Positions 38,593 to 61,814 of a stretch of 64,000 nucleotides of DNA are shown here, one piece after another (within the stretch, counting starts at the first letter, position 1; every line of letters begins with the position of its first letter). The notes under the pieces are model-generated. The model saw nothing but the letters and a program-made list of their open reading frames with translations, searched no databases and was not told the DNA's origin. The DNA is taken from contig NZ_AQOR01000001.1 in assembly GCF_009846755.1 (NCBI RefSeq), positions 1 through 64,000 of the forward strand, in the 5' to 3' direction. The position numbers and the translations under genes are program-made. Origin of the DNA: Alcanivorax sp. S71-1-4. Its GTDB lineage: Bacteria > Pseudomonadota > Gammaproteobacteria > Pseudomonadales > Alcanivoracaceae.

Positions 38593-38602
38593 GGGTGTAA
38601 TA

Positions 38603-43412: not shown

Positions 43413-43425
43413 TAAGGTGTTTTTT

Positions 43426-43830: not shown

Positions 43831-43864
43831 TTTTTTAGCCATGCTTGGGGATCAGCGCTGGTTC

Positions 43865-45122: not shown

Positions 45123-45141
45123 GGGAGCACCTTGAGTTAGA

Positions 45142-45173: not shown

Positions 45174-45249
45174 GTGGGACAACCCCGCAGGCGATTATTC
45201 AAAGCAATGCGCTTATCCGGGTTCTTGGGTGATTGTGCCGGCTCTGTGC

Positions 45250-46179: not shown

Positions 46180-46254
46180 GATGTGCTCCAGATGGAAGGC
46201 CCCGTCAGGTCCGGTTTGCGTAACAGGTAGACAGACGGGGCGGGCGTGAAGGAT

Positions 46255-47250
46255 TCAGGTACGCACCAGAAAACGGCGCGAACCGGCTTTGCGCAGGGGG
46301 TATTGGTGGAGCAGGCCAGGCCGGTTTTTCAGCAGGCGCTTGTAGTCCAGCACGGTGCTGTCCTGGCTGCGTTTCCAGGACACGTCGCCATTGGGGAACA
46401 CGGCTTTGCTGGCCTCGCCCATGGCTTGCTGGATACGTTGCTTCAGGGTGGCTTCCCGGGTGCTCAGGCGGCTGACCCGCTCGCGGATATCCAGCAACTC
46501 ATCGAAGTCCCCGCACAGGGACGGGTCCGAGGTCAGGTCCAGAGTGTTGCCGGCATCGCGTGGGTAGAGGTTCTGTAGGGCCTTGCCCGCCGAGTCGCTG
46601 CCATCCGCTAGTGGTGGTGTGTCGGTCTCCACGAAGCGCCAGAATTCCCGCTCCAGTTCGATCAGCCGGTTGATCACCGCCTCGTCGCGCTCGACCCGGA
46701 AGACCTGCAAGTCCTGGCCGCAGAGCAGCACGCAGACATCGGCGGCCTGCTTGCCGGTGACGGCCAACTGGTGCTGTACCTGGCACTGCACATAATCCGG
46801 CACGCCGTCGCGCCAGAGACGCGCCCCGAACTCCCCGGCGGTCTTGCACTCCAGAATCTGCACCGCGTCGTGGCCGACCACGGTGTAGTCCAGGTTGGCC
46901 AGCATCCAGGCCTTGTCCGGATCGGGGTGTTGCAGGACCGCGTTGATCCGGCGGACCTTGTTGCCGGTCTTGCGGCTGTACTGCTCGGCCACGACAGGTT
47001 CCAGCACATTGCCCCAGTAGAGGGGCGAGCTCATGTCATCGGCGTCCACTTGGGGCCGCGCTCGTCCGGTCTTGTCCATCCATAGCGCCAGGCGCGACTG
47101 GTAGGGACTGATGCTGGCGGCTGCGGCGGCCTCACTGGCGCCGATGCCACGTTTGCGCACTTGCAGCCACTGTTCCCGGCTCATGCCCTTGGTGGACACT
47201 AGGCGCAGGGCGGGCCGTGGGCGGTTGGGGGTAATGGAAGGTGTGGGCAT
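46255..47250 (-). CDS. YqaJ family viral recombinase/exonuclease
   Basis: A 331-residue lambda-exonuclease-like protein. 'REQWLQVRKRGIGASEAAAA' (the RxxGIGASE motif), 'SPLYWGNVLEPVVAEQYSRK' with Glu, 'LANLDYTVVGHDAVQILECK' (Asp...Glu-x-Lys catalytic pattern) and 'VQCQVQHQLAVTGKQAADVC' are the family signatures. It probably digests double-stranded ends to support single-strand-annealing recombination of the element. ATG 47250 has AAAGGAG upstream. No Bet/RecT annealing partner is visible nearby. Confidence 0.9.
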   Translation of the reverse strand: MPTPSITPNRPRPALRLVSTKGMSREQWLQVRKRGIGASEAAAAASISPYQSRLALWMDKTGRARPQVDADDMSSPLYWGNVLEPVVAEQYSRKTGNKVRRINAVLQHPDPDKAWMLANLDYTVVGHDAVQILECKTAGEFGARLWRDGVPDYVQCQVQHQLAVTGKQAADVCVLLCGQDLQVFRVERDEAVINRLIELEREFWRFVETDTPPLADGSDSAGKALQNLYPRDAGNTLDLTSDPSLCGDFDELLDIRERVSRLSTREATLKQRIQQAMGEASKAVFPNGDVSWKRSQDSTVLDYKRLLKNRPGLLHQYPLRKAGSRRFLVRT

Positions 47251-47339
47251 GGTAGCTACTCCTTTATAGAAACAAAGAAGCCCGGCCAGGTGCGATGCCT
47301 GGCCGGGCCTATGCTGCGATGGATGAAAGACCCGTTGGG

Positions 47340-48218
47340 TCAGGTTGTGCGGGTCATACCGCCAGAGGCGATTCGGGGTGCGACCCAAAGGGCTGGGGAA
47401 GGATGTGGAAAGCCACCATGTTGTGGTGGGTGGGGTGTATGGTTGGCGGTCGTGCGTTGCGTGCCGGACGCGATTCGCCCCTCGGAGAAGATCACGGCCT
47501 GATCATGCAAGTGATCCAGCAGTGGCCACCACCAGGGGGGTTCGGTGAGGGGCAGATGTTGATCCCGTTGGCCATCATTGGCGCTGACATGGACTTCCAG
47601 GCAGCGCTCGCAGGCGAGCATTTCCGCGACCAGCGCGTGCTCGGTCACTCCGGAGCGGGTGGCGAGGATATGCAGGTGCGAGAGGTCCAGCGCGAACCAG
47701 GCCCTTGACTCCAACAACAGGCGATACTCCCGCCAGCTACTGAACAGCCAGACATTCCCCGGCACCGGATAATGCCCCTCGATGGCCACGGGCATTCCCA
47801 GATACTGAGTCATCGCCAGGCTATGGCGAATCACGGCGTCGATGGAGGCTACGCTGCGGCGTCCCGCGTGGGCTGAATACACGGGTGCGCCCAGTGCCTC
47901 GGAAATGCCGCCCAGGGTTTGGAAGTAATCCCGTTGCGTCGGCCAGTCGCACAGATCAATGACCCGGCCCACATCACGGACTCGTACATTGGCGTGCAGA
48001 CGCCACTCGATTTCCGGGTGACGTTCGCGTAGCGCAACGGCCCAGTCCCGGTCCAGATACCCCAGGTTCTGGGGGCACAATTGCATGCGGTGGGTGGACA
48101 GAGTGCCCAGTAGCGGATCGGTGGGCGGACAGGCCAGCGCATCGGCGATGGCGATCTCATGCGGCACACGCCCATAGGCGCCCAGCGAGACATGGGCGGA
48201 TTCAGAGCGTGTATTCAT
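47340..48218 (-). CDS. TIM-barrel protein of the AP endonuclease 2 / sugar isomerase type
   Basis: A 292-residue protein with a metal-dependent TIM-barrel pattern. Key points are 'YSAHAGRR', 'PVAIEGHYP' (Glu), 'FALDLSHLHI' (Asp, His), 'CLEVHVSANDGQRDQHLPL' (His, Asp, His) and VIFSEGR (Glu). This spacing fits AP_endonuc_2 family xylose-isomerase-like barrels, which act on sugars or abasic DNA. The last 50 residues are a Pro/His-rich tail without similarity. It overlaps the DUF6878 stop by 17 bp. Its presence in a recombination-type block suggests a nucleic-acid role, but this is unproven. Confidence 0.68.
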   Translation of the reverse strand: MNTRSESAHVSLGAYGRVPHEIAIADALACPPTDPLLGTLSTHRMQLCPQNLGYLDRDWAVALRERHPEIEWRLHANVRVRDVGRVIDLCDWPTQRDYFQTLGGISEALGAPVYSAHAGRRSVASIDAVIRHSLAMTQYLGMPVAIEGHYPVPGNVWLFSSWREYRLLLESRAWFALDLSHLHILATRSGVTEHALVAEMLACERCLEVHVSANDGQRDQHLPLTEPPWWWPLLDHLHDQAVIFSEGRIASGTQRTTANHTPHPPQHGGFPHPSPALWVAPRIASGGMTRTT

Positions 48219-48639
48219 GGTGGAGGCTGCCGGTGTAGTACTCGGTATGCTGGAGGGTGCAGGTGTCTTCGACCACATCGAAGGTGACTTCGCCGGCACC
48301 ACCGTCATCGTTTTCCCAGCGGCAGTGCATCTGCTCGATCCAGCCCAAGGTGAACTCACGCAGCGCGTCCAGCGCGGGGCGCTCCTCCTCCGTCAGGACA
48401 TAGGTGTGGTGGCCGTTGAGCGTCTCCACTTTGGGCAGACGCAGGGGGACGGTGGCGTTTTCCAGTATGGCCAGTGCCTGCGGAGGCGTGGCCGTGATCT
48501 TGTCGGTATCGCCCGCGTCGCCGCCACCGGAATAGAAGATGGTCAAGCGTTGGATGCCATGCTGTTTGAGCAGGGTCATCAGAACGGTGCGGTTGTATGG
48601 CAGGGCATCCGCCCTGAGTTGGTGGTAGGTGCTGATCAT
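48202..48639 (-). CDS. DUF6878 family protein
   Basis: A 145-residue protein starting 'MISTYHQLRADALPYNRTVL', with 'LTIFYSGGGDAGDTDKITAT' and a C-terminal 'MHCRWENDDGGAGEVTFDVV' segment. It is a conserved gene of integrative and conjugative element accessory blocks, function unknown. ATG 48639 has AAGGAG upstream, chosen over the longer frame at 48657. A decayed tandem copy lies upstream at 48880-49018. Confidence 0.72.
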   Translation of the reverse strand: MISTYHQLRADALPYNRTVLMTLLKQHGIQRLTIFYSGGGDAGDTDKITATPPQALAILENATVPLRLPKVETLNGHHTYVLTEEERPALDALREFTLGWIEQMHCRWENDDGGAGEVTFDVVEDTCTLQHTEYYTGSLHHEYTL

Positions 48640-48879
48640 GATGATCTCCTTGATCAATCGGGAAGGGGGATAAAGGGTGATTTCCCCGGCATGAGCGGGT
48701 TGCTCCGTCAGCCGATCGCGCGCCGTACCCGCCGCCTCCAGTCAAAGGCCCTCTGTCCGGCCCAGTGGTGCAAGGCCCGTAGGTTAGCCGGAAAGGATCG
48801 TCAAAAGTGGAGGGTGCGGGGGCGGTGCGACATGGCATGTCGCGGTGGTGCGGGTGGTGTTTTCAGGTACGACAGCTGG

Positions 48880-49018
48880 CCGCTTGGGATGCGCTGTGAA
48901 CCTATTTGCCGCGTTGGTGGATAGCCGCTGCTGGATGCCGGGCTGCCTGAGCAGGCTGATCAAAGCCGTGCCGGCTGCGTTGGGCGTCCGCCCTGGATTG
49001 GCGATATTCGCCGATCAT
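48880..49018 (-). pseudogene. Decayed second copy of the DUF6878 gene
   Basis: Starting at ATG 49018, with a GGGAGACCATC leader like that of the intact gene, it reads MIGEYRQSRADAQ (compare MISTYHQLRADAL). It then shifts frame to ALISLLRQPGIQQRL (compare TVLMTLLKQHGIQRL) and loses similarity. A frameshifted, truncated tandem duplicate is the simplest reading. Confidence 0.6.
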
Positions 49019-49409
49019 GATGGTCTCCCTGGTTGATAGCGGTATGAGGGGCATCAAAAGGTGCCCACTCATACACAAGCAGCCCGGCCACCTGGTCGCC
49101 GTCGGCATCCAGGCGTATCCAGTCGAAGTCGCCGCGTCTGGCCCAGCGGTACAGCGCAAGCAAGTCGGCTGGATAGGCGATGTGGCCCGGCGGGGACTTG
49201 GGGCCACAGGGTGAGGGAAGGTGGCGACGCAACGTGTCGTCGTCGCGCCGGGGCGCCTTCAGGTACAGGAACAGGCCTTCAGGATAGGGCGCGACCACGG
49301 CGATGGCGCTGTCGGCCGGCCCGTCCAGTAATCGCTGAAGGGTGTTCGGGTGGATATGGGCGGTGCTCAGCACCGGGATACGTGAGACATAGCAGGGTTC
49401 ACGGGCCAT
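48960..49409 (-). CDS. DUF5983 family protein
   Basis: A 149-residue protein: 'VSRIPVLSTAHIHPNTLQRL', 'PYPEGLFLYLKAP' and 'LYRWARRGDFDWIRLDADGD' then QVAGLLVYEW fit DUF5983, another conserved gene of these element blocks. The last 30 residues run into the leader and start of the decayed DUF6878 copy, so the natural C-terminus was probably near YEW; the extension may reflect a lost stop. Function unknown. Confidence 0.65.
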   Translation of the reverse strand: MAREPCYVSRIPVLSTAHIHPNTLQRLLDGPADSAIAVVAPYPEGLFLYLKAPRRDDDTLRRHLPSPCGPKSPPGHIAYPADLLALYRWARRGDFDWIRLDADGDQVAGLLVYEWAPFDAPHTAINQGDHHDRRISPIQGGRPTQPARL

Positions 49410-49542
49410 GGTGTGCTCCGGTTGTGAGTTGAACTGGGGTATCTGGGGATAGCCGAGGTGTAGGGCTGTGCCGGTAGGCAGGTGAGTGAGGTGGTATTTG
49501 TCTGCGCCAGACGTGAGCGTGGCGGGCGAATGCCGGCCAGTG

Positions 49543-50502
49543 TCAGGCGGTCAATAGCAGCGCCTGATCCATGGCTTTCTGCTTGAGCACCGCCCCCTGG
49601 CCGAACCAGGCCGCGTCCAGCCGGTGGTCCGTACTGCGTGCCCGGCGTTCATGGTCCACGAACTCGGTGACGGCATTCAGCAGGCCATAGGCCGTGTTAT
49701 GGGACGAGGCCAGGTTGGCCCCACGCCCGGCCCCGTCGAACAGCGCCATCACCCGGGCCATGGCCCGTTCGTTTTTGCTGGCCTGGGGCTGCTCTGGACT
49801 GTCCTGAAATACCCTGCTCAGAAACTGCTTCACGTCCGGGCGCTTCACCTTACGCTCGCTCAAGGTTTTCAGACGGTACATGAAGTCATCCCAGGCTGAC
49901 ACCGAAATGCCCAGTTGCCGTTTCACCGCCTCCGCATCAAAGACACAGCGGTGCGAGACCTTCACCGACTGCGCCTGGCCATTGAGCGCGACCGCCAAGG
50001 TGTTGTTGCAGACCACCCGGACACTGGTGAATTGGGCGGTGGTGGCCATGGTGCCGTCGCAGGCCGTGGCCAGCAGCACATAGGCGTTGGTGCGATCCTG
50101 GCCCTTGAGCACACCGCTCTGCCCGGTACGGGCCAGCGCCCAGACCTTGCGGCCACCTTTAAGGACTCCGGCTGTCTCCAGCTCGAAGCCGGAGACCTCG
50201 GTCAGATCCCGATAGAACTCCAGAATCTCCTGGGGCTGGACCACCTGATAGCGCCTGCTGACCACGGACAGGGGGGCCTGGGTATCCGAGCGGTACAGTA
50301 CCTTGTGGTCATCGAAGGAATGGATCTGGCCCAGAGGGCCTTTGCGGGTATCGACAAAGCGGACCGGGGTCTCCTCGATTTGCCAGTCGAGCCCGGCCTG
50401 CGTCAGCCAGACCGCCAGGGGTTGGCGGCTGGCCAGTTGATTGCCCAGGCCATGCCAGGGTGTTTGGCCCACATAGGCCATGTGTTCCACGAGATGTGCC
50501 AT
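49543..50502 (-). CDS. DUF932 family phage/plasmid-like protein
   Basis: A 319-residue protein with the DUF932 pattern: 'MAYVGQTPWHGLGNQLASRQ' (the WHGLG motif), 'LYRSDTQAPLSVVSRRYQVV' and 'FTSVRVVCNNTLAVALNGQA' (the RVVCNNTL motif). Common in phages, plasmids and integrative elements; function unknown but conserved beside recombination genes. ATG 50502 has AGGAGA upstream; the longer frame is leader sequence. Confidence 0.88.
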   Translation of the reverse strand: MAHLVEHMAYVGQTPWHGLGNQLASRQPLAVWLTQAGLDWQIEETPVRFVDTRKGPLGQIHSFDDHKVLYRSDTQAPLSVVSRRYQVVQPQEILEFYRDLTEVSGFELETAGVLKGGRKVWALARTGQSGVLKGQDRTNAYVLLATACDGTMATTAQFTSVRVVCNNTLAVALNGQAQSVKVSHRCVFDAEAVKRQLGISVSAWDDFMYRLKTLSERKVKRPDVKQFLSRVFQDSPEQPQASKNERAMARVMALFDGAGRGANLASSHNTAYGLLNAVTEFVDHERRARSTDHRLDAAWFGQGAVLKQKAMDQALLLTA

Positions 50503-50615
50503 GGTTGTTCTCCTGCAGTGAGATGTGTCGCAAGAACGCGGATAAGCGGCATAAACGCCCATGCCCAGCGGGCAGGGCAACGAAAGTTGTGTAAAGCGGG
50601 AAGGGGGAATGCGGC

Positions 50616-51110
50616 TTAAAGCCAGCCACGCTCGGCGAGGCTGACCCAGTGGCTTTGGGAGACGATGAAGTGATCCAGCACTCGGATATCGATCAGGGCC
50701 AGGGCCTCCGACAAACGCCGGGTGATGACCCGGTCGGCTTCGGATGGATTGGGGCAACCTGATGGGTGGTTATGGGCAAAGATGACCGCCCCGGCATTGT
50801 GTGCCAGCGCCCGTTGCATCACCACACGGGGATAGACGGTCGCCGCATTCAGGGTGCCGCAAAATAGCTTCTCGAAGCAGATCACCTGATGCAGGTTGTT
50901 CAGGAACAGGACGGAGAAGTGCTCGTTCTTCTCCGTGGCCAGGGCAAGTTGCAGAAAGCGGGCTGCATCCTCGGGACGTGTCAGGTTTTTCTGGTCCGTC
51001 AGGTTCTCCAGCAGGATATCAGCGGCGATCTGGACCAGTTGATCCGGGCTGACATAGCCTCGGACCTGGTAGAGGCCCTGATCATTCTTGATGTAAGGTG
51101 TATCGGACAT
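50616..51110 (-). CDS. radC: RadC-like JAB domain protein
   Basis: A 164-residue protein of the RadC/DUF2466 type without the N-terminal HhH domain. The JAMM metal site is complete: Glu in 'NEHFSVLFLNNLHQVI', then HNHPSG with downstream Asp (HNHPSGCPNPSEAD). This short form is typical of mobile elements; despite the name no repair role is established. ATG 51110 is the natural start. It lies between the DUF932 and zinc-ribbon genes on the same strand. Confidence 0.9.
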   Translation of the reverse strand: MSDTPYIKNDQGLYQVRGYVSPDQLVQIAADILLENLTDQKNLTRPEDAARFLQLALATEKNEHFSVLFLNNLHQVICFEKLFCGTLNAATVYPRVVMQRALAHNAGAVIFAHNHPSGCPNPSEADRVITRRLSEALALIDIRVLDHFIVSQSHWVSLAERGWL

Positions 51111-51217
51111 AGAGGGTTCTCCAGACGGCAAAAAGCCCGCACGAGGCGGGCCGGGGAAAGGGCGAGTAAGGTAGGGTGACCGTCGGCTTGTGAGCGGCAG
51201 CCAGCAACACGCGGGCA

Positions 51218-51559
51218 TTAACTGATGGTGTCGGTATCCACGCTAAAGGTGTGAGCACATTCCTGGCATTCGAATGCATCCAGGATGGTCTCATCGACGA
51301 AATCGCCCAGGGCGGCCCCGGCTGAACCCCCGGCAACCCCGCCGACCAGGCCGCCGAGCAGTGCGCCGGCAATTCCGCCCATCACAGACCCTGCCGGGCC
51401 GGCAAACCCCCCGATGACCATGCCGGTGCGGGCGCCACTGGTGGCCGCAGCGATACCGCTGGCTGTGCCCGCGACAGTGCCGACAGAAGCGCAGAGTTTG
51501 CGGGCGGTGTGATGGGCCTTGATCCGGATGGATCGGCACTGGGGGCATTGCATGATCAT
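51218..51559 (-). CDS. Zinc-ribbon protein with inserted glycine-zipper
   Basis: A 113-residue protein. One CxxC (CPQC) is at residues 4-7 and a second (CQEC) near residue 98; between them is a long Gly/Ala-rich glycine-zipper stretch ('GGFAGPAGSVMGGIAGALLG'). The two knuckles could form a single zinc ribbon with a membrane-inserting hairpin between. GGAGG lies 5 bp before ATG 51559. It is a small gene often seen in element blocks; function unknown. The following 290 bp to the next gene contain AT-rich DNA only. Confidence 0.65.
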   Translation of the reverse strand: MIMQCPQCRSIRIKAHHTARKLCASVGTVAGTASGIAAATSGARTGMVIGGFAGPAGSVMGGIAGALLGGLVGGVAGGSAGAALGDFVDETILDAFECQECAHTFSVDTDTIS

Positions 51560-51849
51560 GAAGACCTCCATGGGATATGCGTTGGGAAGGCCAATCCTTC
51601 CTAGCTTCATGGGGGTGGTATGTATTTGAAAATAAATAGATTTATTTTATTGGATAAAGTGGCGGTTAAAAACAGTGGTGGCAGTCTCTTTGCTTCGGGA
51701 GGTGGATGATAGGGAGTAAGGTGTTCTATGCCGCCAGTTACTCGTGTGTGGAAAAATCTGAAAACACAGAACTAGTAGCTAAGCGCTGAGCTAAAAAATT
51801 GAATATTGTCGAGTGTAGTGGAACGTTTACTTACAATTCGGCTTGATTT

Positions 51850-52680
51850 CTACACCTTGCCCACCTTAATTGTGTTGTCCTTAGAGTTATATGCGCTAAC
51901 GATATCGAGGTGTTTGAGTCTCTTCAGGAGAGCATGATTTGCGGGAGTATTAGGAACCTCCAGCTTGTCTCTAGCTGATGATGCCAGTTTAGGATAGTCG
52001 CCATCAAGCGACTGAAGAATGGCTAAGATTGCATCTTTCGACAGTATTTCTAGGTGGTGTTCTAGCAAGATAACGACATCTTGAGTTGGTACGCCGCTGC
52101 TTACCAGCTTCCCTATCGCATCAATTGAGAGCTCTCGTTTGTGTTCTATAGCGAATCGAACCAATTGAACGAGACCCTTTCTGGTGCCGTCTTGAATATA
52201 TTCACTGGCGTTGTCAGTTATCAAGTTTTTGATATGGATGTTGACTTGATTGCTGAGAAAAAGTGAGTCTAAGTCTCCCTTTACAAGATCGGAATTCATA
52301 TACTCTTGGAATTTTCTAGAATTGTGAATGAAATGTTCTCGAGTTTTCCAATCGCACCCTAATAGACGAGTATAAGTGTCTGCATTATCCTCAATAATAT
52401 CGTGCTTCAGAAGCTGTACGAAAAGATCGCTTTTTTCCAATGGAGTATCGTCTAAATCTAGATAGCACTCAAGATTTAAGCTCGCACTGATTTCAGCGCG
52501 AAGCGCTGTTGAGGGAAGGTGCTCGTTCGCCGACAAAATATTCTTCACAAGCGCTAGCTTCTCGCTGTTCTCATGGGATTCGTGTTCTCTGATTTCTTTA
52601 GAGGAAATGAGCATCTTTGCTAAGTTAGCATCAACTGAACCAATCGAACTAATATAGCGGTTAACGTTATTGAAGAGTAA
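51850..52680 (-). pseudogene. C-terminal remnant of a large protein (possibly YobI-like NTPase)
   Basis: The ATG-started part (52614) gives 254 residues, but the frame continues upstream without a start as 'LLFNNVNRYISSIGSVDANL' to a TGA at 52682-52684, right at the border of an IS remnant. The protein is helical and ends 'LKRLKHLDIVSAYNSKDNTI', which resembles the end of YobI-like defence-associated P-loop NTPases. No P-loop is present. It looks like a 3' fragment cut off by the insertion. The family assignment is weak. Confidence 0.5.
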
Positions 52681-52839
52681 TCATGTGGGTCATAATCCCT
52701 CTGAAGCTCCTTTGGCTTGTGATTCAGCTAGCGTTCCTTTGCGTGACTGAGCGAGCCTCCCGCTGCCGTAAGGCTGCCCCCTCTGTCAGGATAGTTGTCG
52801 CCTCACTTGAACCCAGAGGGAGCGGCAACGGGGACAGAT

Positions 52840-53312
52840 ATGCCCCGATATTCCGACGAACGCAAAGCAACCATTCTGAATCGCTTATTACCCCCAGAAA
52901 ACCTTTCCGGCCAGGAAGGCGTTAGTGAAGCGACCTTGTACAATTGGCGTAATCGAGCCAGAGAAGGGGAATGCCTGTGTCGGGAAGTGGTAAGCAATCG
53001 GATGACTGGTCATCGTAAGCGAAGCTGGCCACGTTGATGGAAACAGCATTATTATCTGCATCTGGTGGAAGATATCTTCAGCCGCAAGGGCGTTGCCTGG
53101 GAAGTCTATGACTGTGAAAGTGGTGAATACGCCGCCGAACTGATAGAGCGAGGCGCCCTTCGTGAAGGGCGCTTGCGCCAACCGATGGCGCTGCACTCGG
53201 ATAACGGTGCTCCGATGGAATGACAGGCGATGCGGGCCAAGCTGGCCGAGCTGAAGATCACGCCGTTGCACAATCGGCCCAGAGTTAGTAGCGATCCGGC
53301 CACGCCCTGACA
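52840..53312 (+). pseudogene. IS3-family transposase remnant
   Basis: An orfA-like start at 52840 (MPRYSDERKATILNRLLPPE, then 'GVSEATLYNWRNRAREGE', an HTH) runs to 53037. It joins directly to part of an orfB integrase core, 'HLVEDIFSRKGVAWEVYDCE' and ALHSDNGAPM, which is broken by TGA near 53221 and then fades. The middle of the element is deleted. No clear terminal inverted repeats are visible. It separates the truncated NTPase from the PLD gene. Confidence 0.72.
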
Positions 53313-53414
53313 AGGTGTGATGGCTGGGCGCTTGTTCCTCAGGTACTGCGTGGGCCACAAACCAGCGGCGTGGATGCGCCGCCTTGGGTTTGTATTAATA
53401 TCCGTACGGAACTA

Positions 53415-55151
53415 TTAATCAAACTCTAGCAATGAGCCTTTTAGCTGCTGAGAAGCCTCTAGTGCTAACGGTGAACATTCAACCAAAATGCCCAGCTCTG
53501 AGAAATGTGCTTCATCGGGTGGGTCTGCGCTGCACAGGTTTTGGCTTGTGACTAATAGGCTGGATAAATCCCAAGAAAGGCATTTAGCATGGACCCTAGG
53601 CTCTCGACAACTATGTAATTTTACTGATGAGCTGATTGGGGCTGATGGCGATTCATGATTGCGATCATCTTTAGAGTAATAAATATCAATAGTCAGCTTA
53701 CGTTCGTTGGCGGCTGCTGATAGGGGCAGACAAATGAGGTTTCTTGCGCCATCGCCTAGCCGATGACTAAAAACAAAAATATTTTCTTGAGCGTGGTCGC
53801 GAGCAGCTTGGACGACCAAGTTATGTTGACCTCCTGTAATAAGCGCCATACGTACCTTTGTACCATGGGGGTAGGGTGCGCCTTTTAATCGAAGAGTTCG
53901 TGCCACTAAAGCTCCAGTAAGGGGGGAGGTGCCTCCCGGGTACGGACGTGATAATTCCGTAAGATAGCGTAGAATGGGGGCCACGATTGCTGGGTCACGG
54001 ACACGTAAAGAGCACTCAAGGCTGTCGAAGCTTGAAGATAGCCAGTTGCAAGAGCCAACTACACATGCCATGTGTCCAGACGGGAGGTCATAAGCTAGAA
54101 TTTTTGCATGAGATCCTGTTGAGAAGTATTCAAAGTTAACGATTGATGCCCCCCCAGACTTATTTCTTAAAAGATCCTCGCATTGCCTAACAGCCGCACT
54201 GGTTGAACCTTTCCTATCACCAGGAGATCCTTGCCCCCATAGAATTTGAATTCTAACGCCTCTCTCGTAAGCATTTCGGAAATTATCATATAAAAGATCA
54301 AAAGTTACAGGATTTACGAAGGTTGAATGAATAACTACGAATTCTTCTGCCTTTTCAAGAGCAATTCGCACGGCATTTAAGTGAGCGGGCCCGCCAATAA
54401 TAAGCGCGTCACTCAAATCAAGCCTGGCAGATATATAATTAATGCCTTCCGAAATCTCTGTAACCGTTGTCTTATCGAATACGTCTATTGGTGATTTTCT
54501 TTGTTCGGTTGAGGATTTCTGTGCTGACTGTACTAGCTTCCGTAATTTCTCAGAGGCGCTTGCAGGAAGCCCGTGAATTACTTCGCTGCGAATATTTAAT
54601 AGGCAGTACTTGTCGCTGATTCTGGCTTGTTCTTCACCAAATTTCTTGAATGTTTCCTCGTCCTGTAAGAGAACCTCTAAAAGATCTGCTGTTTCTGCAT
54701 AAACCTGATGTGACGGAGATTCCAGTACTAGAATTTCGTTACTCTCTTGGAGATGAGAAAGTCTGGATTTAGAGACAACTTGACCAAAATCATTATAACG
54801 AAAACAGCCTCCTGTATATCCTTCGAGCACAAACTTTGCGATGCGATCGACCGGATTGAGTATCCTGGGTAAGTCTGTTTGCTTTACTGCCTCCTGCCCG
54901 CTTTCAGTTCCGGAAAAAAGAACTTCACCTTTTATTTCACGCGCTTCAGCCCAGCCAGCCTTCATTAGCCGGGACAAAATTTCTATTATGAGCCGGTAAG
55001 GCATCGCGGAGCTTCTGGATAAGCTGCGTGCTGATGAGTTTTCTCGGCAAATTTGCCAGAGAATGGAGTGTTCTATTAGGGTCCAGCGAGATCCTTTATC
55101 TACATGTAGCCGAACGGTTCCATATTTTATAGGAAGGGCTATGATTTTCAT
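53415..55151 (-). CDS. Phospholipase D-like nuclease
   Basis: A 578-residue protein with two PLD HxK motifs: GSHAKILAYDLPSGHMACVVGSCNW near residue 349 and RVHAKCLSWDLSSLLVTSQN near residue 517. The Asn/Ser that complete each HKD-like half follow. Residues 24-75 look like a winged helix ('LIEHSILWQICRENSSARSL'). PLD-fold proteins in defence islands, such as DrmC of DISARM, are often nucleases. It starts 4 bp after the stop of the helicase gene, so the two are cotranscribed. It is AT-richer than the backbone. Confidence 0.85.
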   Translation of the reverse strand: MKIIALPIKYGTVRLHVDKGSRWTLIEHSILWQICRENSSARSLSRSSAMPYRLIIEILSRLMKAGWAEAREIKGEVLFSGTESGQEAVKQTDLPRILNPVDRIAKFVLEGYTGGCFRYNDFGQVVSKSRLSHLQESNEILVLESPSHQVYAETADLLEVLLQDEETFKKFGEEQARISDKYCLLNIRSEVIHGLPASASEKLRKLVQSAQKSSTEQRKSPIDVFDKTTVTEISEGINYISARLDLSDALIIGGPAHLNAVRIALEKAEEFVVIHSTFVNPVTFDLLYDNFRNAYERGVRIQILWGQGSPGDRKGSTSAAVRQCEDLLRNKSGGASIVNFEYFSTGSHAKILAYDLPSGHMACVVGSCNWLSSSFDSLECSLRVRDPAIVAPILRYLTELSRPYPGGTSPLTGALVARTLRLKGAPYPHGTKVRMALITGGQHNLVVQAARDHAQENIFVFSHRLGDGARNLICLPLSAAANERKLTIDIYYSKDDRNHESPSAPISSSVKLHSCREPRVHAKCLSWDLSSLLVTSQNLCSADPPDEAHFSELGILVECSPLALEASQQLKGSLLEFD

Positions 55152-55155
55152 AATT

Positions 55156-58100
55156 TTATTTAATGCCTAATTCAACGGATTTTATAATCGCTACAGGGCC
55201 ATTGTCGCCACAGTTCGCCTGAATAAACTCAAACATCCTTTTGAGAAAGGCGCCTTCTTCCTCTTTTGGATAAGAGGCTGTAACTCGTTCTGACCAAAAC
55301 GCTAGACTGCCTACAAGCACTAGTTGCCATTTGGCGCGAGAAACCAGCACATTCATTCTGTTGGGGTGGCGCATGAATCCAACACCAGAAAGCCCAGTGT
55401 GATGATTATTACGGACTAATGAGATAATAACGAGATCGGCTTCATCTCCCTGAAAGCTGTCAACTGTACCTATATGAAGAGTTGGTTGCGATGAGGTAGT
55501 GTTTAGGCTGGGGGCATCCCCTCGCTCAATAAAACTTAGTTCCCCATTCGCTCTTGCTGTATGAAGCTTGTCACGAAGTAGGTTAACTTGATGTCGGTAT
55601 GGCGCAAGGACTGCTATGGATACAGGTGAAGATGAGTTGCATTCTATCGTTTTTAAATATTCTACGACACTATCAGCCTCGCCGGGATTAGAATAAGGTG
55701 GGTGGTTTTCTGCCTTTTTGTTTCCAACGTCTATCTGGGTGTAAGGCATATTGATTAAAATTATAGGTTTTTCTGCTTTTGAGTTGGGGGCGATGCAATT
55801 GAATGGCCGTTCTGAATTAAAGTGGTCGCCGGTTTCTTTGGATGTTTCAAGTATGCCTTTATAGAAAACATCAGATACTAATCGTGAAATGTCGGGATGC
55901 ATTCTGTGCTGGACCGTAAGAGGAACGGCGACAGGTAATTGCTTGTTTATTTCTCGTCCGTATTCTCTAATAACTAAGCGTTCAAATAATCCAAAAAGAG
56001 ATTTTGCATTTTCGCACAAGTCACGAAGCTCTTCCTGTTGGGCTGATTCTTGAAGGTCATCAACAATGTCTTGGAGCCCTGCTGCTCTGAATGAAGCGCC
56101 AAGCATGCCTGCTCCGGCGGCAAGAGCTGAGGAGACGCGTTCTGGAGACCCTAGTAGCTTTTTTATCCGTTCTTCATCAAAGGGCGGAAGCTGTTCATGG
56201 TCACCTATTAAAAGACGTCGGTGCGAGAGCATCATTGGTGATGCTAGTTCTAAACCGTTAGCTTTTGCTGCCTCTTCGATTATCACCTGATCAAAAAACG
56301 ATTGGTCATCAAGCAGGTGTTCAATGTCAGCCGAGTTGGTCGTAGAGAACACGAGGTTTGCGGATCGTAGTAGAAGGCTCTCCATGGATCTAATTTCAGA
56401 CGTGTCTAAGCCGCCATTGTTACTTGATAGCGCTGTGTCGATGCGGCCCTTTAATTCAGCCGGGAGTTTTTCATATAACTGACTGTTAGAGAAATCACGA
56501 GCGATTTCTTTTGTGACCGAAGAAAGCTCCCAGGTGCTTCCAGAAAAACGACCATCGGCGGAGCGAGAGCGAATTATGATTCTATCAGGGTTTTCATTGG
56601 AGTTTTTTAAATAGCTTTCAAGGACATGGTCCACCGCATGATGGCTTTGCGCTGTAATCAGGATGCGAGAGGATGGATCTTTAAGAAAGCGTGTACGAAG
56701 CAGTTCACATACGAGGCGAGTCTTACCAACACCGGGCGGGCCCTGTAAGAGAACGCATGGTAACCTATCTTCAACTACCCTAAATGCTGTCATTTTAGGG
56801 GCATCTAGGGATCTTATTTCTTCGCTGGAAAGAGGGGCGTCACCAGAACTCCGCAAGAAGTATCTGGGATCCTTCATGACTTCAAGTAATTCTTGTCGCT
56901 CGCGCAATGCTGCAAGAGATTTCATTTTTCGTCGTGCCAGACGAGCTTGTGCCATATCGTTGTTTGGTCGTAGTAATACCTCATTACTAATTGGTGGGAG
57001 TGAGGTCGGGCTCTCGAAGGTATACGTGGTCTGTCCGTTGTCGTCAGGAGATGAGCTCACAAACTGCCAAAGGGTGGTAAATGAATCTTGGCCGGCGCCG
57101 ATCGCTTTTTCTTCTACAACCCAGTCTTCCTCGGTTGTTGTCGCGTCATCTGTAAGCGAGGCTTTTAATAGCGCAGCAGGAGATTCTAGTCCAAGAGCCT
57201 CATAGAGTCCTGTGCGAGTGCTGTCCGCTCTGGCAGCAACTACAAGAACGCTTGTGCCTGAAGATGTGTCTTTTGACACTATTTTTACAGGGCAGGCCTT
57301 TGCTTCTTCAAATAAGGTTTCCATAGCCTGTAAAAGAACGAAAGCTCGATAAATATATTCGCTCTCATTCGAGTCTTGGTCGGGATTATTATATTTCAGA
57401 AATTCTAGCCAATTTCTAGACGCGCTCCTAAGTGAAGCCCAGTTTCTTCGTATTTCCGACGGCTCTTTGAGAGCAATAGGTGCTTTTCGAAGACTTCGCC
57501 TCATGGTGACATCGTTTTGGTTTGGCGGTTTACGGTCAGCAGCTTCGCAATACGCCACATCCCAAGAGGATAATGCTGTAGCCGGGCGGAAAGGTTTTAT
57601 TTTGTAGGTAAGGTGGCGACCATGAAGCAGAAAGTGCGTTTGCTGACTAGCAACTCGGGGCCTTGTTTCGTACGCTGTTGCGTCAGCGATATCAGCTTCG
57701 ATGAAATCAAGCTGAGAAATGCGATCGTCAGCGGCGATAGAGTTACCCGAAGCTTCAACGATTCGCCTTGTAAGCATGCTTGAAGGTTCAAGTCTTACGG
57801 CGAGCTTTAACGCTATATCAGACGACTCGGTTTGACCGGCTATTTCGCTTTGGATATCTGCAATTCGTCCAATTACGTAGTTTTCATCGATAACGTCTAC
57901 ACTCTTTCCTCGCACTATTGTTCTAAGAAGCTCTCTTTCTGTTGGAAGAAGAGCTTCTGCTGCGTGAGCTTTTCCCCGTAAGAAGGATGAAGGGTCAATG
58001 CCAAAAATTTTGCATATGAGTTTGCCGAATGCTTTCCAATCATCAATGAAAGAGTAAGGAGTATTGCCGCTTGGTGGAGTAAATTGCCTTACACCTATTC

Positions 58101-58659
58101 GAGCGGTATGCAATCGCATTGACCACTCAAATCCAGTTAGCTGAAAATCTGGCTCCTCATCTGCGTCAGTGAAAACTGACCTCTCATCGAGATTTCGGTG
58201 GAGAATTCCGTGTCGATGGAGAGTGGATAGACCTCGTGCAATTCTCGCCGTGTTGGCCCATATGATTGCTCGACTTTGAACATTGCGAGGGCGAGTGAGC
58301 CAAGCTCTACTCTTGGTTTTAATATGTTCAGAAAGCGGAAAGCGCTGCCCTGGCGACAGAACTAGATAAAATCCACCTTGATCTTCTCCGGCAGCGAGCA
58401 TTGGTACAATCAGGTCTCGTGCGCCGGGAGAGGAAATTAGAGTGTTTAATTGTCGAACTTCGTTTGCCCAAAGTTCACGAAGAGCACCGTCGTCTTCTAC
58501 GTTTCGTTGCCATTTTTTTATTAAGACCTGCGTGCCGTCGTGGCTTTCTGCGAAAATTAATCCGGGTATCCCTGCTGCAGGTTTCATGCGTTGAAGCCAT
58601 TTTGTTTCGAGCCGGAAACGGCCCAGAAAGTTTGAACGTTGCCCGTTGTCCTTAGTCAT
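55156..58659 (-). CDS. Protein-kinase-like domain fused to an SF1 (UPF1-type) helicase
   Basis: A 1167-residue fusion. Residues 15-330 have a kinase-like pattern: VLIKKW (VAIK-type Lys), 'HGILHRNLDERSVF' in place of HRDLKxxN, and LTGFEWS in place of DFG. Asp of both catalytic motifs is missing, so it is probably a pseudokinase. From about residue 600 comes an SF1 helicase: Walker A LLQGPPGVGKT (about 640), 'VIIEEAAKA' (about 795), GDHEQLPPF, QHRMHPDIS, 'VDSFQGDEADLVIIS' (about 1073) and 'NRMNVLVSRAKW'. It pairs with the PLD gene 4 bp downstream. The set looks like a nucleic-acid-targeting defence unit; I do not recognise it as a named system. Confidence 0.85.
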   Translation of the reverse strand: MTKDNGQRSNFLGRFRLETKWLQRMKPAAGIPGLIFAESHDGTQVLIKKWQRNVEDDGALRELWANEVRQLNTLISSPGARDLIVPMLAAGEDQGGFYLVLSPGQRFPLSEHIKTKSRAWLTRPRNVQSRAIIWANTARIARGLSTLHRHGILHRNLDERSVFTDADEEPDFQLTGFEWSMRLHTARIGVRQFTPPSGNTPYSFIDDWKAFGKLICKIFGIDPSSFLRGKAHAAEALLPTERELLRTIVRGKSVDVIDENYVIGRIADIQSEIAGQTESSDIALKLAVRLEPSSMLTRRIVEASGNSIAADDRISQLDFIEADIADATAYETRPRVASQQTHFLLHGRHLTYKIKPFRPATALSSWDVAYCEAADRKPPNQNDVTMRRSLRKAPIALKEPSEIRRNWASLRSASRNWLEFLKYNNPDQDSNESEYIYRAFVLLQAMETLFEEAKACPVKIVSKDTSSGTSVLVVAARADSTRTGLYEALGLESPAALLKASLTDDATTTEEDWVVEEKAIGAGQDSFTTLWQFVSSSPDDNGQTTYTFESPTSLPPISNEVLLRPNNDMAQARLARRKMKSLAALRERQELLEVMKDPRYFLRSSGDAPLSSEEIRSLDAPKMTAFRVVEDRLPCVLLQGPPGVGKTRLVCELLRTRFLKDPSSRILITAQSHHAVDHVLESYLKNSNENPDRIIIRSRSADGRFSGSTWELSSVTKEIARDFSNSQLYEKLPAELKGRIDTALSSNNGGLDTSEIRSMESLLLRSANLVFSTTNSADIEHLLDDQSFFDQVIIEEAAKANGLELASPMMLSHRRLLIGDHEQLPPFDEERIKKLLGSPERVSSALAAGAGMLGASFRAAGLQDIVDDLQESAQQEELRDLCENAKSLFGLFERLVIREYGREINKQLPVAVPLTVQHRMHPDISRLVSDVFYKGILETSKETGDHFNSERPFNCIAPNSKAEKPIILINMPYTQIDVGNKKAENHPPYSNPGEADSVVEYLKTIECNSSSPVSIAVLAPYRHQVNLLRDKLHTARANGELSFIERGDAPSLNTTSSQPTLHIGTVDSFQGDEADLVIISLVRNNHHTGLSGVGFMRHPNRMNVLVSRAKWQLVLVGSLAFWSERVTASYPKEEEGAFLKRMFEFIQANCGDNGPVAIIKSVELGIK

Positions 58660-59323
58660 TCTTTATTGTTCCTTTTCCCTGCAATTCGATTAAAAATCTA
58701 GACTATATTGCAGTGTGGAGGTCGTCGACCTTTTTTTGGGCAGGGCACGAGTTGGAGGTTGCCGAAAGCTTTGCGGAAAGGGGCTTTACGAGCGAGGAGA
58801 CAGCGGTGGGTTGTAGCACCAGTGACATTAGAATCTGCTGCGAAGCAGGCCTGTGATGATGTCTCCTAACTCATTGAATTATAATATAAAATCGAGGAGG
58901 GAGAAGGAGTCGATCCTCCGAACCAGCGATTACGAATCAGTTGCTGTACTGACTGAGCTATCTGACATGGCTCACACGGGCGGTCGAGGAGCGCTTCTCG
59001 ACACAGGTCCGTGGTAGTTGCAAAGGCACCGGCTTCCTAAGAGCGGTCACCCGGCCGTTGCGTTTGCGGGCAGGTTGCCACGGTGGTGAAGGTGACGATA
59101 TTCGTGGCCGTTACGCTGGCACCAAGCCACGGTGGAGAAGGAGAGGGCATCCTTGTGCGCGCCGATAGACCCCACTCGTAGGGCCTTTAAAGGCCGCTAA
59201 AGCGTTGGTCCGAAGACGTCCACCCTCGTTCGTTCAGATCCAATAAATAATTGTAGGTTTTGGTATAGGTTTGCATATCTATATGAAGAAATACCCCACA
59301 AATCAAACCTAATACCCCTCACA
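58660..59323. other. Intergenic region between helicase operon and integrase
   Basis: 664 bp without a protein gene. It contains a degenerate tRNA-like sequence (58892-58967) and GC-rich tracts of no clear identity. The helicase promoter is presumably within the first 100 bp (AT-rich 58670-58710). Confidence 0.5.
58892..58967 (-). pseudogene. Degenerate tRNA-Thr(CGU)-like sequence
   Basis: The minus strand reads TAGCTCAGTCAGTACAGC (D arm, 3 of 4 stem pairs), then ACTGATTCGTAATCGCT (anticodon arm with loop TTCGTAA, anticodon CGT, stem partly broken). GGAGGATCGACTCCTTC follows (T arm, stem paired with one wobble, loop ATCGACT). The acceptor strands TGTCAGA and TCCCTCC pair at only 3 of 7 positions. 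It is therefore recognisable but not functional. Confidence 0.5.
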
Positions 59324-60541
59324 TCAAAAACATACAATGGAATCTATGAGACCGGCAACTTGTTGGTGAGCCTGCTTCCTCTCCTCAAAATAGTCATAAC
59401 GATCATAAATCCCTTCCACCCCTTTCAGCTTGTGATTCAAACACCTTTCTGCCACATGACCGGGCACACCTTCCGCAGCTGCGAGGCTGCGGAAGGTGCG
59501 TCGCAGGTCGTGGACGGTGAAGTGCTCCAGGTCGCCCATTTTGTTCGGGGGCTGCACTTTCCGGCCGGCTTCGCGACCAAATAGCTTGGAGATGGCGCGG
59601 TTCAGTGTGTCTGGGCCCATGTGTGGTCGCTTGCTGGCTCGCCTCGCCGGAAATACATAGGGAGAGCCACAGGCATGGCCGTGCAGGATCTGCAGCCACT
59701 CAATGGCCTGGGTGGGTAAGGGAATGGTGATGGCGGCGCCGGTCTTGCTGCGTTCCTTCGAGAGGCGCCAAACGCCTGTCTCCAGGTCGAATTCCCGCCA
59801 TTGAGCCTCGCAGAGTTCGCTTTTCCTCACGCCGAGCACGAGAAACAGGCAGCAGGCCAGGTAGTTGTCCCGGCCAAAGCTGCTGATGTTCTCCTGAAAG
59901 ACCTGAAAGGCGTGCTGTAACTCATCCAGCGAAAGGGTGCGTTCGCGGCTGGTTTCTTCGCCTCCGGCGTCGTTCACCGTGAACGGGCTGGCTGGATTGC
60001 TTTGGCACAGGTCCAGTTTGATGCCATGGCGGAACAGCTGCTTCATGTACATCAGGGTGTCGTTGGCGATGGTGGGCCGATTGCTGCCATGAAGCTTTTG
60101 CAAAACAGCGCGTACGTCTCTTGGGGTGACATCGGCGATGGGGTGGTTGCCGATGAGGGGGTGGATCTCCTTCCGGTAGATGCGCTCGGGTATTTGGGGA
60201 TATTTGAGGCGTCTGGACAGGTCGTTGTCGAACCAGTCCTGGAAGAGCTCCTCAACGGTATTGAGTTCAGGCAGTGCGAGCTTTGCTTTCTCGCGGATAG
60301 GGTCGGTGCCGGTGCGCAGGCCTTGTTTGGTCATGACGGCCTCTTCCCGGGCCGAGGCGAGGCTCATCTGCGGATATCGGCCCAGCGTTACCTCATGTCG
60401 TTTGCCCTGGCTGCTATAGCGAAGCATCCAGTAGGGGACGCCGGATTTGCGGACGCAGAAATAGAGGCCGCCACCATCCGCATATTTCTTGGGGGCCTGG
60501 TTGGTAAGTGATTTGATCTGTAGTGCTGTCAGCTTGCTCAT
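59324..60541 (-). CDS. int: Tyrosine integrase (DUF4102/P4 type)
   Basis: A 405-residue site-specific recombinase. The N-terminal DUF4102 arm-binding domain shows 'KYADGGGLYFCVRKSGVPYW'. The catalytic domain has Arg in LGVRKSEL (about 234), HDLRRTF (about 345) and the nucleophile Tyr in 'GIYDRYDYFEERKQA' (about 378); the usual LGH box reads LNHK. Start ATG 60541 (AAGGG upstream) is preferred over 60559. It lies 290 bp from the attR core in yicC, as expected for the integrase acting there. Four TGCCCACCA repeats lie in its upstream region. Confidence 0.95.
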   Translation of the reverse strand: MSKLTALQIKSLTNQAPKKYADGGGLYFCVRKSGVPYWMLRYSSQGKRHEVTLGRYPQMSLASAREEAVMTKQGLRTGTDPIREKAKLALPELNTVEELFQDWFDNDLSRRLKYPQIPERIYRKEIHPLIGNHPIADVTPRDVRAVLQKLHGSNRPTIANDTLMYMKQLFRHGIKLDLCQSNPASPFTVNDAGGEETSRERTLSLDELQHAFQVFQENISSFGRDNYLACCLFLVLGVRKSELCEAQWREFDLETGVWRLSKERSKTGAAITIPLPTQAIEWLQILHGHACGSPYVFPARRASKRPHMGPDTLNRAISKLFGREAGRKVQPPNKMGDLEHFTVHDLRRTFRSLAAAEGVPGHVAERCLNHKLKGVEGIYDRYDYFEERKQAHQQVAGLIDSIVCF

Positions 60542-60574
60542 CTCGACCCTTTGTTCCACAGGCTCCCGGAGGTT

Positions 60575-60725
60575 TGCCCACCACTTTTTGCTTCTGGAGT
60601 GTGGGGGGAAAGGCCTTTGTTGTCAGGGAGTTGGCGTGCGGGCGCTTGCTTTTGCCCACCATTTAGGGGAAAGAATAGGGGGTGTCGGGCGGAAAGTCAC
60701 GTTTTGCCCACCAGGTTGCCCACCA
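60575..60725 (+). repeat. Right-end TGCCCACCA repeats (integrase arm-type sites)
   Basis: TGCCCACCA occurs at 60575-60583, 60653-60661, 60705-60713 and 60717-60725. The last two are 12 bp apart, exactly like the pair at the left end of the island. They occupy the integrase promoter region and may also serve autoregulation. Confidence 0.55.
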
Positions 60726-60831
60726 TTTTCATCTGGATAACGGTGGGTCCTGGTGGATTCTCGTGGACGATCAACCTATAAAAATACAATATAAACAGTA
60801 AGTTATGGATGAATGTGGAATTCTGTGGATT

Positions 60832-60851
60832 CTATTCGATGTTCTGGATCT
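60832..60851 (-). repeat. attR within the yicC 3' end
   Basis: AGATCCAGAACATCGAATAG encodes the last YicC codons (I-Q-N-I-E-stop). It shares the 10-bp core AGATCCAGAA (60842-60851) with attL at 23638-23647. Confidence 0.72.
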
Positions 60852-61695
60852 GTTCCCTCATCTGCTCAATCAACACCTTCAGCTCCACTGCTGCCTGCGT
60901 CGTCTCTGTATCAATCGATTTCGACGCCAGCGTATTCGCTTCTCGATTCAGCTCCTGCATCAGAAAATCCAGCCGCCGGCCGACATGCCCGCCCTGCCCC
61001 AGCGCACGGCGCACTTCGGTGACGTGGGCTTCCAGGCGGTCCAGTTCTTCCGCCACATCCATTTTCTGCGCCAGCATCACCAGCTCCTGTTCGAGCCGGT
61101 CCTGATCCGGGTTGGCGACCACGTCTTCGACACGTTTCACCAGCCGCTGGCGCAGTGCATCCTGGATGCGTGGCAGGGCAGCGCGGGTGCGGCTCACCTG
61201 TACCAGCACGCCATCGAGGCGATCTTCAAGCAGTTGCTTCAGCACGGCGCCTTCGCGGGCGCGGGTCTCCACCAGGACCGCGAGGGTTTCGTCCAGCAGC
61301 GTGAGGGCTGGCGCCATCAGCGGGGCGAAGTCGGCTTCGCGGGTCTGCATCACGCCCGGCAGGCGCAGGATGTCCGCCGGATTCACCGCAGACGTCGGGC
61401 CGAGCAGTTCATTGATGCGGTCCATGGCGGCGCCGAACTGGGTGACCAGGGCGTCGTCGATGACGATGTCGGTGTCGCCGCTGTCCAGCTGATAGCGCAG
61501 GCCCACTTCCACCTTGCCGCGGTTGAGGTGTTTGCGACACAGCTCGCGCAATGGGCCGTCGAGTTCGCGAAAGGCTTCCGGCAGACGGGGGGTGACTTCA
61601 AGATAGCGGTGATTGACGGATTTCAGCTCCCACACAAGGGTGGCGCCTGTGACGTGGGTGTCCCGGCGGGCAAAGGCGGTCATGCTCTGAATCAT
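60832..61695 (-). CDS. yicC: YicC family endoribonuclease-like protein
   Basis: A 287-residue protein with the YicC start 'MIQSMTAFARRDTHVTGATL', the 'ELKSVNHRYLEVTPRLPEAF' segment, and the C-terminal DUF1732 region 'VGRRLDFLMQELNREANTLA' then SKSIDTETTQAAVELKVLIE. YicC proteins have endoribonuclease activity. ATG 61695 is chosen because relatives begin MIxSMTAFAR, and GGAAG lies upstream; 61710 is possible. It is divergent from rph. Its 3' end is the island integration site, and the coding sequence stays intact because the element supplies the last codons. Confidence 0.95.
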   Translation of the reverse strand: MIQSMTAFARRDTHVTGATLVWELKSVNHRYLEVTPRLPEAFRELDGPLRELCRKHLNRGKVEVGLRYQLDSGDTDIVIDDALVTQFGAAMDRINELLGPTSAVNPADILRLPGVMQTREADFAPLMAPALTLLDETLAVLVETRAREGAVLKQLLEDRLDGVLVQVSRTRAALPRIQDALRQRLVKRVEDVVANPDQDRLEQELVMLAQKMDVAEELDRLEAHVTEVRRALGQGGHVGRRLDFLMQELNREANTLASKSIDTETTQAAVELKVLIEQMREQIQNIE

Positions 61696-61814
61696 CATCT
61701 CTTCCGTCATGCTGCGAAGAGATGGAGTCTAACCCGCCGGGCGCGGGGCTGCGAGCCGCCGGCCTGTGCTAGAATCGCGGCCTGACTCAACCCCCGAGAA
61801 TGCAAGGAGACAGC

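What the first reader, a model, noticed from the sequence alone, without database searches (positions are those of the whole stretch)
53415..58659. Pseudokinase-SF1 helicase fusion paired with a PLD nuclease
The 1167-residue protein joins a kinase-like domain lacking both catalytic Asp residues (HRN for HRD, TGFE for DFG) to a full UPF1-type helicase. A PLD protein with two HxK motifs and a possible winged helix begins 4 bp later. PLD plus helicase recalls DISARM, but DrmA/DrmB and a methylase are absent. The unit is AT-rich and sits beside a truncated NTPase and the integrase, typical of defence cargo.
Basis: partly seen in the sequence, partly recalled or inferred. Interest (0 to 1): 0.78.

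Follow-up and report, generated by a model that had tools for sequence, protein, structure and literature searches.

The report
Mokosh defence pair with dead kinase
These two genes are a known kind of bacterial anti-phage system (Mokosh type I: a helicase plus a nuclease), but they belong to a branch whose built-in protein kinase has lost its catalytic residues and yet is kept by selection, which suggests that it now works as a binding or switch part rather than an enzyme.

Summary
Window 55156-58659(-) matches PADLOC MkoA end to end (E 1.4e-241); 53415-55151(-), 4 bp downstream, matches MkoB (E 3.1e-78). This is Mokosh type I, not DISARM. It lies at the integrase end of a ~37-kb island beside yicC that its close relative G731 lacks.

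The pseudokinase claim holds. A model of residues 8-300 has a protein-kinase fold (pLDDT 70.6; best Z 19.2), with HRN at the HRD place and GFE at the DFG place. In the alignment, 26 of 26 related MkoA rows lack both catalytic Asp; they group on helicase-only trees. Kinase dN/dS is 0.03-0.10 in the 5 of 6 pairs where defined, like the helicase. A sister branch keeps HRD and DFG; 4 of its 7 loci with visible downstream DNA add a PP2C phosphatase, against 0 of 29 pseudokinase loci scanned. A PLD partner follows pseudokinase MkoA in 26 of 27 testable loci.

The conserved pseudokinase branch I did not find in print; the original Mokosh paper was not available. Mechanism is inferred.

The parts
55156..58659 (-). 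mkoA: 1167-aa pseudokinase-SF1 (UPF1-like) helicase
   Evidence: PADLOC PDLC03920 MkoA E 1.4e-241 over residues 10-1149 of 1167; AAA_11/AAA_12
57760..58638 (-). pseudokinase domain (residues 8-300); HRN at 154-156, GFE at 176-178, Lys48 and Glu67 kept
   Evidence: AlphaFold2 pLDDT 70.6, pTM 0.74; Foldseek and VIA-align kinase matches; alignments
55261..56781 (-). SF1 helicase core (about residues 627-1133): GPPGVGKT, EEAAKA, QHRMHP, TVDSFQGDEAD, NVLVSRAK
   Evidence: Pfam, PDB sequence search, conserved columns
53415..55151 (-). mkoB: 578-aa protein with two HxKx4D motifs (H348, H521) and a possible N-terminal winged helix
   Evidence: PADLOC PDLC03922 MkoB E 3.1e-78, residues 2-565; PLDc_2 E 1.3e-10; conservation
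59324..60559 (-). tyrosine integrase of the island (Arm-DNA-bind_3 + Phage_integrase)
   Evidence: Pfam
60832..61710 (-). yicC; the island adjoins its 3' end
   Evidence: Pfam YicC N and C domains; synteny with relatives
23645..60831 (.). mobile island holding the pair (edges approximate); TTGCCCACCA repeats at 23721 and at 60574, 60652, 60704 and 60716
   Evidence: synteny with G731 breaks at 23645 and returns at 59353 inside a related integrase, another insert lying between; repeats 5 found against 0.18 expected

Best explanation
A Mokosh type I anti-phage pair of the pseudokinase branch. Shown: the two genes, their family, the kinase fold without catalytic residues, helicase motifs, two HxKx4D motifs, the conserved pairing, and island carriage. 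Inferred: MkoA loads on phage RNA or single-stranded DNA through its UPF1-like helicase; the pseudokinase, no longer a phosphotransferase, acts as a docking or allosteric module that couples the helicase state to MkoB; MkoB, with both HxK motifs in one chain forming one active site, then cuts the nucleic acid. In the sister branch the same position is held by a kinase with intact catalytic motifs, in some loci next to a PP2C phosphatase, so there the switch is probably phosphorylation; in this branch it was replaced by binding.
For: Family. Pairing in 26 of 27 testable loci. Kinase fold. Catalytic Asp lost at both places in 26 of 26 rows while the alpha-F Asp207 is kept in 26 of 26. Helicase-only tree: 26 rows on one side of a branch, 1 change, SH-aLRT 99; with seven more rows the same side holds 28 labelled rows plus L032, whose own motifs are HRN and RFE. 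Kinase dN/dS 0.03-0.10 in the 5 of 6 pairs where it is defined, helicase 0.05-0.10, so the domain is selected, not decaying. HxK motif 1 in 17 of 17 and motif 2 in 16 of 17 MkoB rows, the miss being a shortened protein. PP2C genes in L139, L140, L141 and L143 of the HRD/DFG branch, 0 of 29 pseudokinase loci scanned.
Against: No experiment bears on this system. Substrate (RNA or DNA), nuclease activity and MkoA-MkoB contact are untested. The first acid of the helicase Walker B motif is Glu, not Asp, in 26 of 26 branch rows, so helicase strength is unknown. 10 of 26 rows lack Lys48 and/or Glu67, so nucleotide binding is not a shared property. L021 has the kinase-like domain and helicase but no recognisable PLD partner. 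L146, L021 and L032 sit on long tree branches, and the trees are quick ones. Kinase states outside the two branches are mixed: L043 reads HGN with an intact DFG. None of the dN/dS pairs contains the window protein itself. The MkoB profile was built from 17 of the loci it was then run on, so those hits are partly by construction; record annotations, the PADLOC genome search and PADLOC scans are the independent part.
Confidence: 0.55

Rival explanations
1. The kinase-like domain is not a scaffold but has another catalytic activity (for example AMPylation or glutamylation, as known from other pseudokinases) that uses Lys48, Glu67 and the new Glu178.
For: Glu at the DFG-Gly place in 25 of 26 rows; Lys48 plus Glu67 in 16 of 26. 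Precedents: an AMPylating and a polyglutamylating pseudokinase are titles in the reference list of PMC13174449 (passages seen).
Against: A whole subgroup of eight rows has Arg48 and Ala or Gly67 and keeps GFE or GYE, which argues against one shared nucleotide chemistry.
Confidence: 0.12
2. The kinase domain is decaying baggage of a degraded system.
For: Catalytic residues are lost; broken copies exist among relatives (L118, L132, L134, L150).
Against: dN/dS 0.03-0.10; His154, Gly176, Glu178 and Asp207-Trp208 invariant in the 15 and 14 rows aligned; 28 single open reading frames.
Confidence: 0.05
3. A restriction-like DNA nuclease working like DISARM, with MkoB as DrmC.
For: Weak DrmC matches of MkoB.
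Against: DrmC match 35.2 bits against a cut-off of 133; no DrmA, DrmB or methylase match among the 12 window proteins scanned with PADLOC; MkoA and MkoB match their own models far better.
Confidence: 0.08

Closest known systems
Mokosh type I (MkoA + MkoB), PADLOC PDLC03920 + PDLC03922
   Same: Both proteins match end to end; adjacent, same strand; kinase-like region + UPF1-like helicase, then PLD protein. Described in print as an RNA helicase with an STK domain and a separate PLD nuclease (PMC11672841, passages).
   Different: The STK domain here is a pseudokinase, as in 26 of 26 rows of its branch.
HRD/DFG branch of MkoA (loci L019, L138-L144, L109)
   Same: Best-matched by the same PADLOC model where tested (L019, L141); MkoB-like gene next (L138-L144, L109).
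   Different: Kinase catalytic motifs intact; partner has one HxKx4D or none; PP2C gene in four loci.
Long MkoA (about 1600 aa; e.g. L023), PDLC03921-like with PDLC03923 MkoB
   Same: Helicase and an MkoB-like partner.
   Different: N-terminal NERD nuclease domain in L023 (NERD is listed for Mokosh type I in PMC10952713, passage), HGD kinase motif, and no HxKx4D-type motif in the 9 of 9 partners of long MkoA scanned.
Mokosh type II (MkoC)
   Same: Helicase and PLD parts of MkoC match in pieces.
   Different: MkoC is one fused protein; here two genes.
CoCoNuT CnuH/CnuE
   Same: UPF1-like helicase with wHTH plus effector nuclease, PLD in type III-C; kinase and PP2C as separate genes in types II and III-A (PMC11090510, passages).
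   Different: No McrBC-like match among the 24 window proteins scanned with Pfam; kinase fused to the helicase.

Membership tests
Mokosh type I | MkoA: kinase-like domain fused to COG1112/UPF1-like helicase | tested here: met
   PDLC03920 E 1.4e-241, residues 10-1149 vs profile 6-1100 of 1112; kinase fold
Mokosh type I | MkoB: separate PLD-family nuclease gene adjacent to mkoA | tested here: met
   PDLC03922 E 3.1e-78 over residues 2-565, 4 bp downstream; PLDc_2
Mokosh type I | Intact serine/threonine kinase catalytic residues (not treated as defining: the PADLOC model covers members with and without them) | tested here: not met
   HRN and GFE; the same model matches L019 and L141, which read HRD
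Mokosh type I | Protects against phage | not testable with these tools
   no experiment
Mokosh type II (MkoC) | Helicase and PLD in one protein | tested here: not met
   two genes
DISARM | DrmA, DrmB and a methylase with DrmC | tested here: not met
   no such match among the 12 window proteins scanned with PADLOC; DrmC below cut-off. Not every window gene was scanned
Protein kinase superfamily | Bilobal protein kinase fold | tested here: met
   Z 18.4-19.2 for the 50 listed entries, 999 of 999 chains Z >= 8; Foldseek probability 1.00, best E 9.5e-9

The most novel reading that the evidence does not exclude
In this branch the pseudokinase is a bait or sensor: it keeps a kinase surface so that a phage product aimed at host kinases or their substrates (a phage kinase, phosphatase or modifying enzyme), or a nucleotide signal, binds it and releases MkoB. 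Mokosh would then have traded a phosphorylation switch (kinase plus PP2C) for direct sensing.
Probability: 0.1. Interest if true: 0.85.

Novelty: new variant of a known kind. Interest (0 to 1): 0.43.

Why it matters
Mokosh is tabled as a system of unknown mechanism (PMC12926258, passage). The two sister branches form a natural experiment: one keeps the kinase motifs and sometimes adds a phosphatase, the other has lost the catalytic residues, keeps the fold under strong selection and has a two-HxK PLD. That makes the role of the kinase domain directly testable by domain swaps and point mutants.

Tried and rejected
Structure: a first model from a 5-row alignment failed (pLDDT 42); only the second is used. 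Two viral scans found no relative (600 and 37 candidate stretches); two others found three MkoA and two MkoB places.

A strict link between dead kinase and intact PLD was considered and dropped: HRD/DFG members have one HxKx4D (L138, L142, L144, L109) or none. The MAFFT alignment puts the DFG of the HRD branch opposite PDF(Q) instead of GFE; rejected because beta-8 is window residues 172-174 in the model and one search aligns DFG with GFE. In the second tree I had set L032 aside as 'mixed' before building; it fell among the pseudokinase rows, so that label needs 2 changes there and 1 if L032 is labelled by its own motifs. One search had left out L032, L042, L043, L109 and L140 because of a faulty motif pattern in the script and an odd P-loop in L140 (GPPGTSKT).

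The MkoA model is not specific at E <= 1e-60: it also rings in 4 of 14 control genomes, through the helicase part; at 1e-130 it rings in 0 of 14. The MkoB model at 1e-10 hits 45 of 398 genomes and 3 of 14 controls, mostly general PLD proteins; only G000, G074 and G256 match over the full length. Promoter and terminator scans were at chance level. No defence match for the seven proteins tried from the G731 insert at the same site. DNA relatives on plasmids were short pieces of core genes and of DUF932. Of 50,697 phage records 4 had a partial match, none at 80% cover. Papers: 33 papers name Mokosh; I read passages of five of them and saw the other 28 only as a listing; passages of three further papers were seen. 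The original description is not held.
Full report
What is there. Two genes on the minus strand, 55156-58659 (1167 aa) and 53415-55151 (578 aa), lie 4 bp apart. Against PADLOC the first is MkoA from end to end (PDLC03920, E 1.4e-241) and the second MkoB (PDLC03922, E 3.1e-78). Together they make a Mokosh type I system. A paper describes Mokosh type I as an RNA helicase with an STK domain plus a separate PLD nuclease (PMC11672841, passages); a 2026 review tables the mechanism as unknown (PMC12926258, passage). One paper states that Mokosh degrades viral transcripts and likens it to the piRNA pathway (PMC11291487, passages); in those passages I saw no experiment for it.

The kinase domain. Alone, the window protein matches Pkinase only weakly (E 6.7e-4, below the cut-off). 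A profile of 14 branch members matches 357 distinct PDB sequences at E <= 0.001, the best being GCN2- and PKR-like kinases. AlphaFold2 with a six-row alignment gave pLDDT 70.6 and pTM 0.74 for residues 8-300, with the order of strands and helices of a protein kinase. Foldseek finds kinases with probability 1.00 (best E 9.5e-9), and VIA-align gives Z 19.2 to 18.4 for the 50 entries listed. Window residue = model residue + 7; Lys48 lies in beta-3, HRN (154-156) between alpha-E and beta-7, and GFE (176-178) just after beta-8. The segment after it is poorly modelled (model residues 171-193 under 50). An earlier five-row job failed (pLDDT 42).

It is a branch, not an accident. I collected relatives from whole genomes, plasmids and IMG/VR. 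In the alignment, 26 of 26 rows of this branch lack the HRD Asp and the DFG Asp; 25 of 26 have Glu at the DFG Gly place (L146 has Ser); 26 of 26 keep Asp207; 16 of 26 keep both Lys48 and Glu67. The two intact IMG/VR copies, not in that alignment, read HRH and GFE. Seven rows of a second branch (L019, L138, L139, L141, L142, L143, L144) read HRD and DFG, DYG or DFA; L140 and L109 read HRD with DYG and DFG.

Trees. A quick tree built from the helicase core alone puts the 26 pseudokinase rows on one side of one branch (1 change, SH-aLRT 99, 0 of 500 shuffles as low). With seven more rows (49 in all) the nine HRD/DFG rows are one group (SH-aLRT 99), and the side opposite the other 20 rows (SH-aLRT 100) holds the 28 pseudokinase rows and L032. 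I had labelled L032 'mixed' beforehand, so the label needs 2 changes; its own motifs are HRN and RFE and its Walker B is Glu-Glu, so by motif it belongs there. L043 (HGN, DFG) lies elsewhere, so partial loss has happened more than once. L146, L021 and L032 are long branches whose place is unsure. In one search the Walker B motif splits the same way: Glu-Glu in the 26, Asp-Glu in the 7. The root is not tested; that catalysis was lost rather than gained is inferred from kinases in general being catalytic.

Selection. For six pairs of related plasmid copies, dN/dS (NG86) of the kinase part is 0.032, undefined, 0.080, 0.098, 0.056 and 0.065, and of the helicase 0.054, undefined, 0.094, 0.102, 0.062 and 0.099. 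Several dS values are near or above 1, so the ratios are rough, and no pair contains the window protein. The dead kinase is kept about as tightly as the helicase.

Pairing. Of 28 intact branch MkoA loci, 26 have an MkoB-like gene directly downstream; in L133 it is split by an insertion element. The two others are L149, where the contig ends, and L021, whose next gene has no PLD match. Left out of the 28: L118 and L134 (MkoA broken, MkoB present), L132 (a 252-aa fragment, no MkoB), L150 (MkoA and MkoB fused by an internal deletion) and L032 (classified late; an MkoB-like protein follows it). The plasmid loci were picked from MkoA and kinase-domain hit lists, not by their neighbours: 23 of the 49 records with a kinase-domain match, many of the rest being Agrobacterium plasmids with the same match. 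MkoB of this branch has HxK motif 1 in 17 of 17 and motif 2 in 16 of 17 rows. In the other branch the partner has one HxKx4D (L138, L142, L144, L109) or no HxK (L139, L140, L141, L143).

Phosphatase. The four loci whose partner has no HxK (L139, L140, L141, L143) carry a PP2C gene as the third gene of the run (confirmed by Pfam for L139 and L141). That is 4 of 8 HRD/DFG loci scanned, or 4 of 7 where downstream DNA is visible (L019 ends inside mkoA). A profile of these four finds no other PP2C in the loci scanned except a weak hit in an unrelated helicase locus (L029, 5.6e-4); 0 of 29 pseudokinase loci have one, though in L127, L128 and L129 the fetched stretch ends within about 300 bases of mkoB. 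None was found in L109, L032, L042, L043 or L148-L150 either. This is what one expects if phosphorylation matters only where the kinase is intact, but the four PP2C loci are close kin on the tree and may be one event.

Rarity. At E <= 1e-60 the MkoA model hits 14 of 398 genomes of the phylum, five over its whole length; at 1e-130 it hits 2 of 367 genomes of the class of G055 and 3 of 369 of the window's class, own genome included. The window protein itself finds 2 of 390 genomes of its order, one being its own. On plasmids 46 of 302 matching records cover 80% or more of it; in phages 0 of 4.

Surroundings. The order of genes shared with G731 (yicC 99% identical) breaks at 23645 and returns at 59353, within a related integrase, next to yicC; G731 has a different insert of about 11 kb there. 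In G699 and G1434 the shared order runs to about 20980 and the gap before yicC is about 1 and 3 kb. TTGCCCACCA occurs five times in the window, once at 23721 and four times at 60574-60725, against 0.18 expected. The pair thus sits at the integrase end of an island of about 37 kb.

Mechanism. Shown: composition, fold, motif states, pairing, selection, island. Inferred from general knowledge of the families: UPF1-like helicases act on RNA or ssDNA, two-HxK PLD chains form one nuclease site, and pseudokinases commonly serve as scaffolds or switches. The most likely working is helicase sensing, pseudokinase coupling, PLD cutting. Substrate and trigger are unknown.

Verdict. Known system, correctly spotted; the pseudokinase branch and its contrast with a kinase branch that can carry a phosphatase are the new part. 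I did not find them in the searches made. Of the 33 Mokosh papers I read passages of five, and the original paper is not held, so print may say more than I could see.

Noticed in passing
window 34434-43412 (+): Second AT-rich cargo run: WYL regulator, two dynamin-family GTPases, an unknown 316-aa protein, a HerA/DUF87 ATPase (PADLOC mad8 2.9e-21) and an LHH nuclease; may be another defence operon.
   Followed up: no
L139, L140, L141, L143: Kinase-intact MkoA followed by an HxK-less MkoB-like protein and a PP2C phosphatase: a three-gene Mokosh variant.
   Followed up: partly
L021 7588-14391 (-): 2268-aa protein with an N-terminal AAA ATPase fused to a kinase-like domain and the MkoA helicase, without a recognisable PLD partner.
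   Followed up: partly
window 55156-58659, residues 795-796: Helicase Walker B reads Glu-Glu instead of Asp-Glu in 26 of 26 pseudokinase-branch MkoA rows, Asp-Glu in the 7 others.
   Followed up: no
L150 5992-8073: MkoA and MkoB fused in one frame by an internal deletion in an IMG/VR contig.
   Followed up: no
L140, residue 598 of the frame read: Helicase P-loop of this HRD-branch MkoA reads GPPGTSKT, so its ATPase may be impaired.
   Followed up: no
window 29316-33962 (+): 1548-aa protein with DUF7151 and InlB-type repeats.
   Followed up: no
window 45250-51218 (-): Mobile-element genes: Gp3-like recombination directionality factor, YqaJ recombinase, DUF932, RadC.
   Followed up: no
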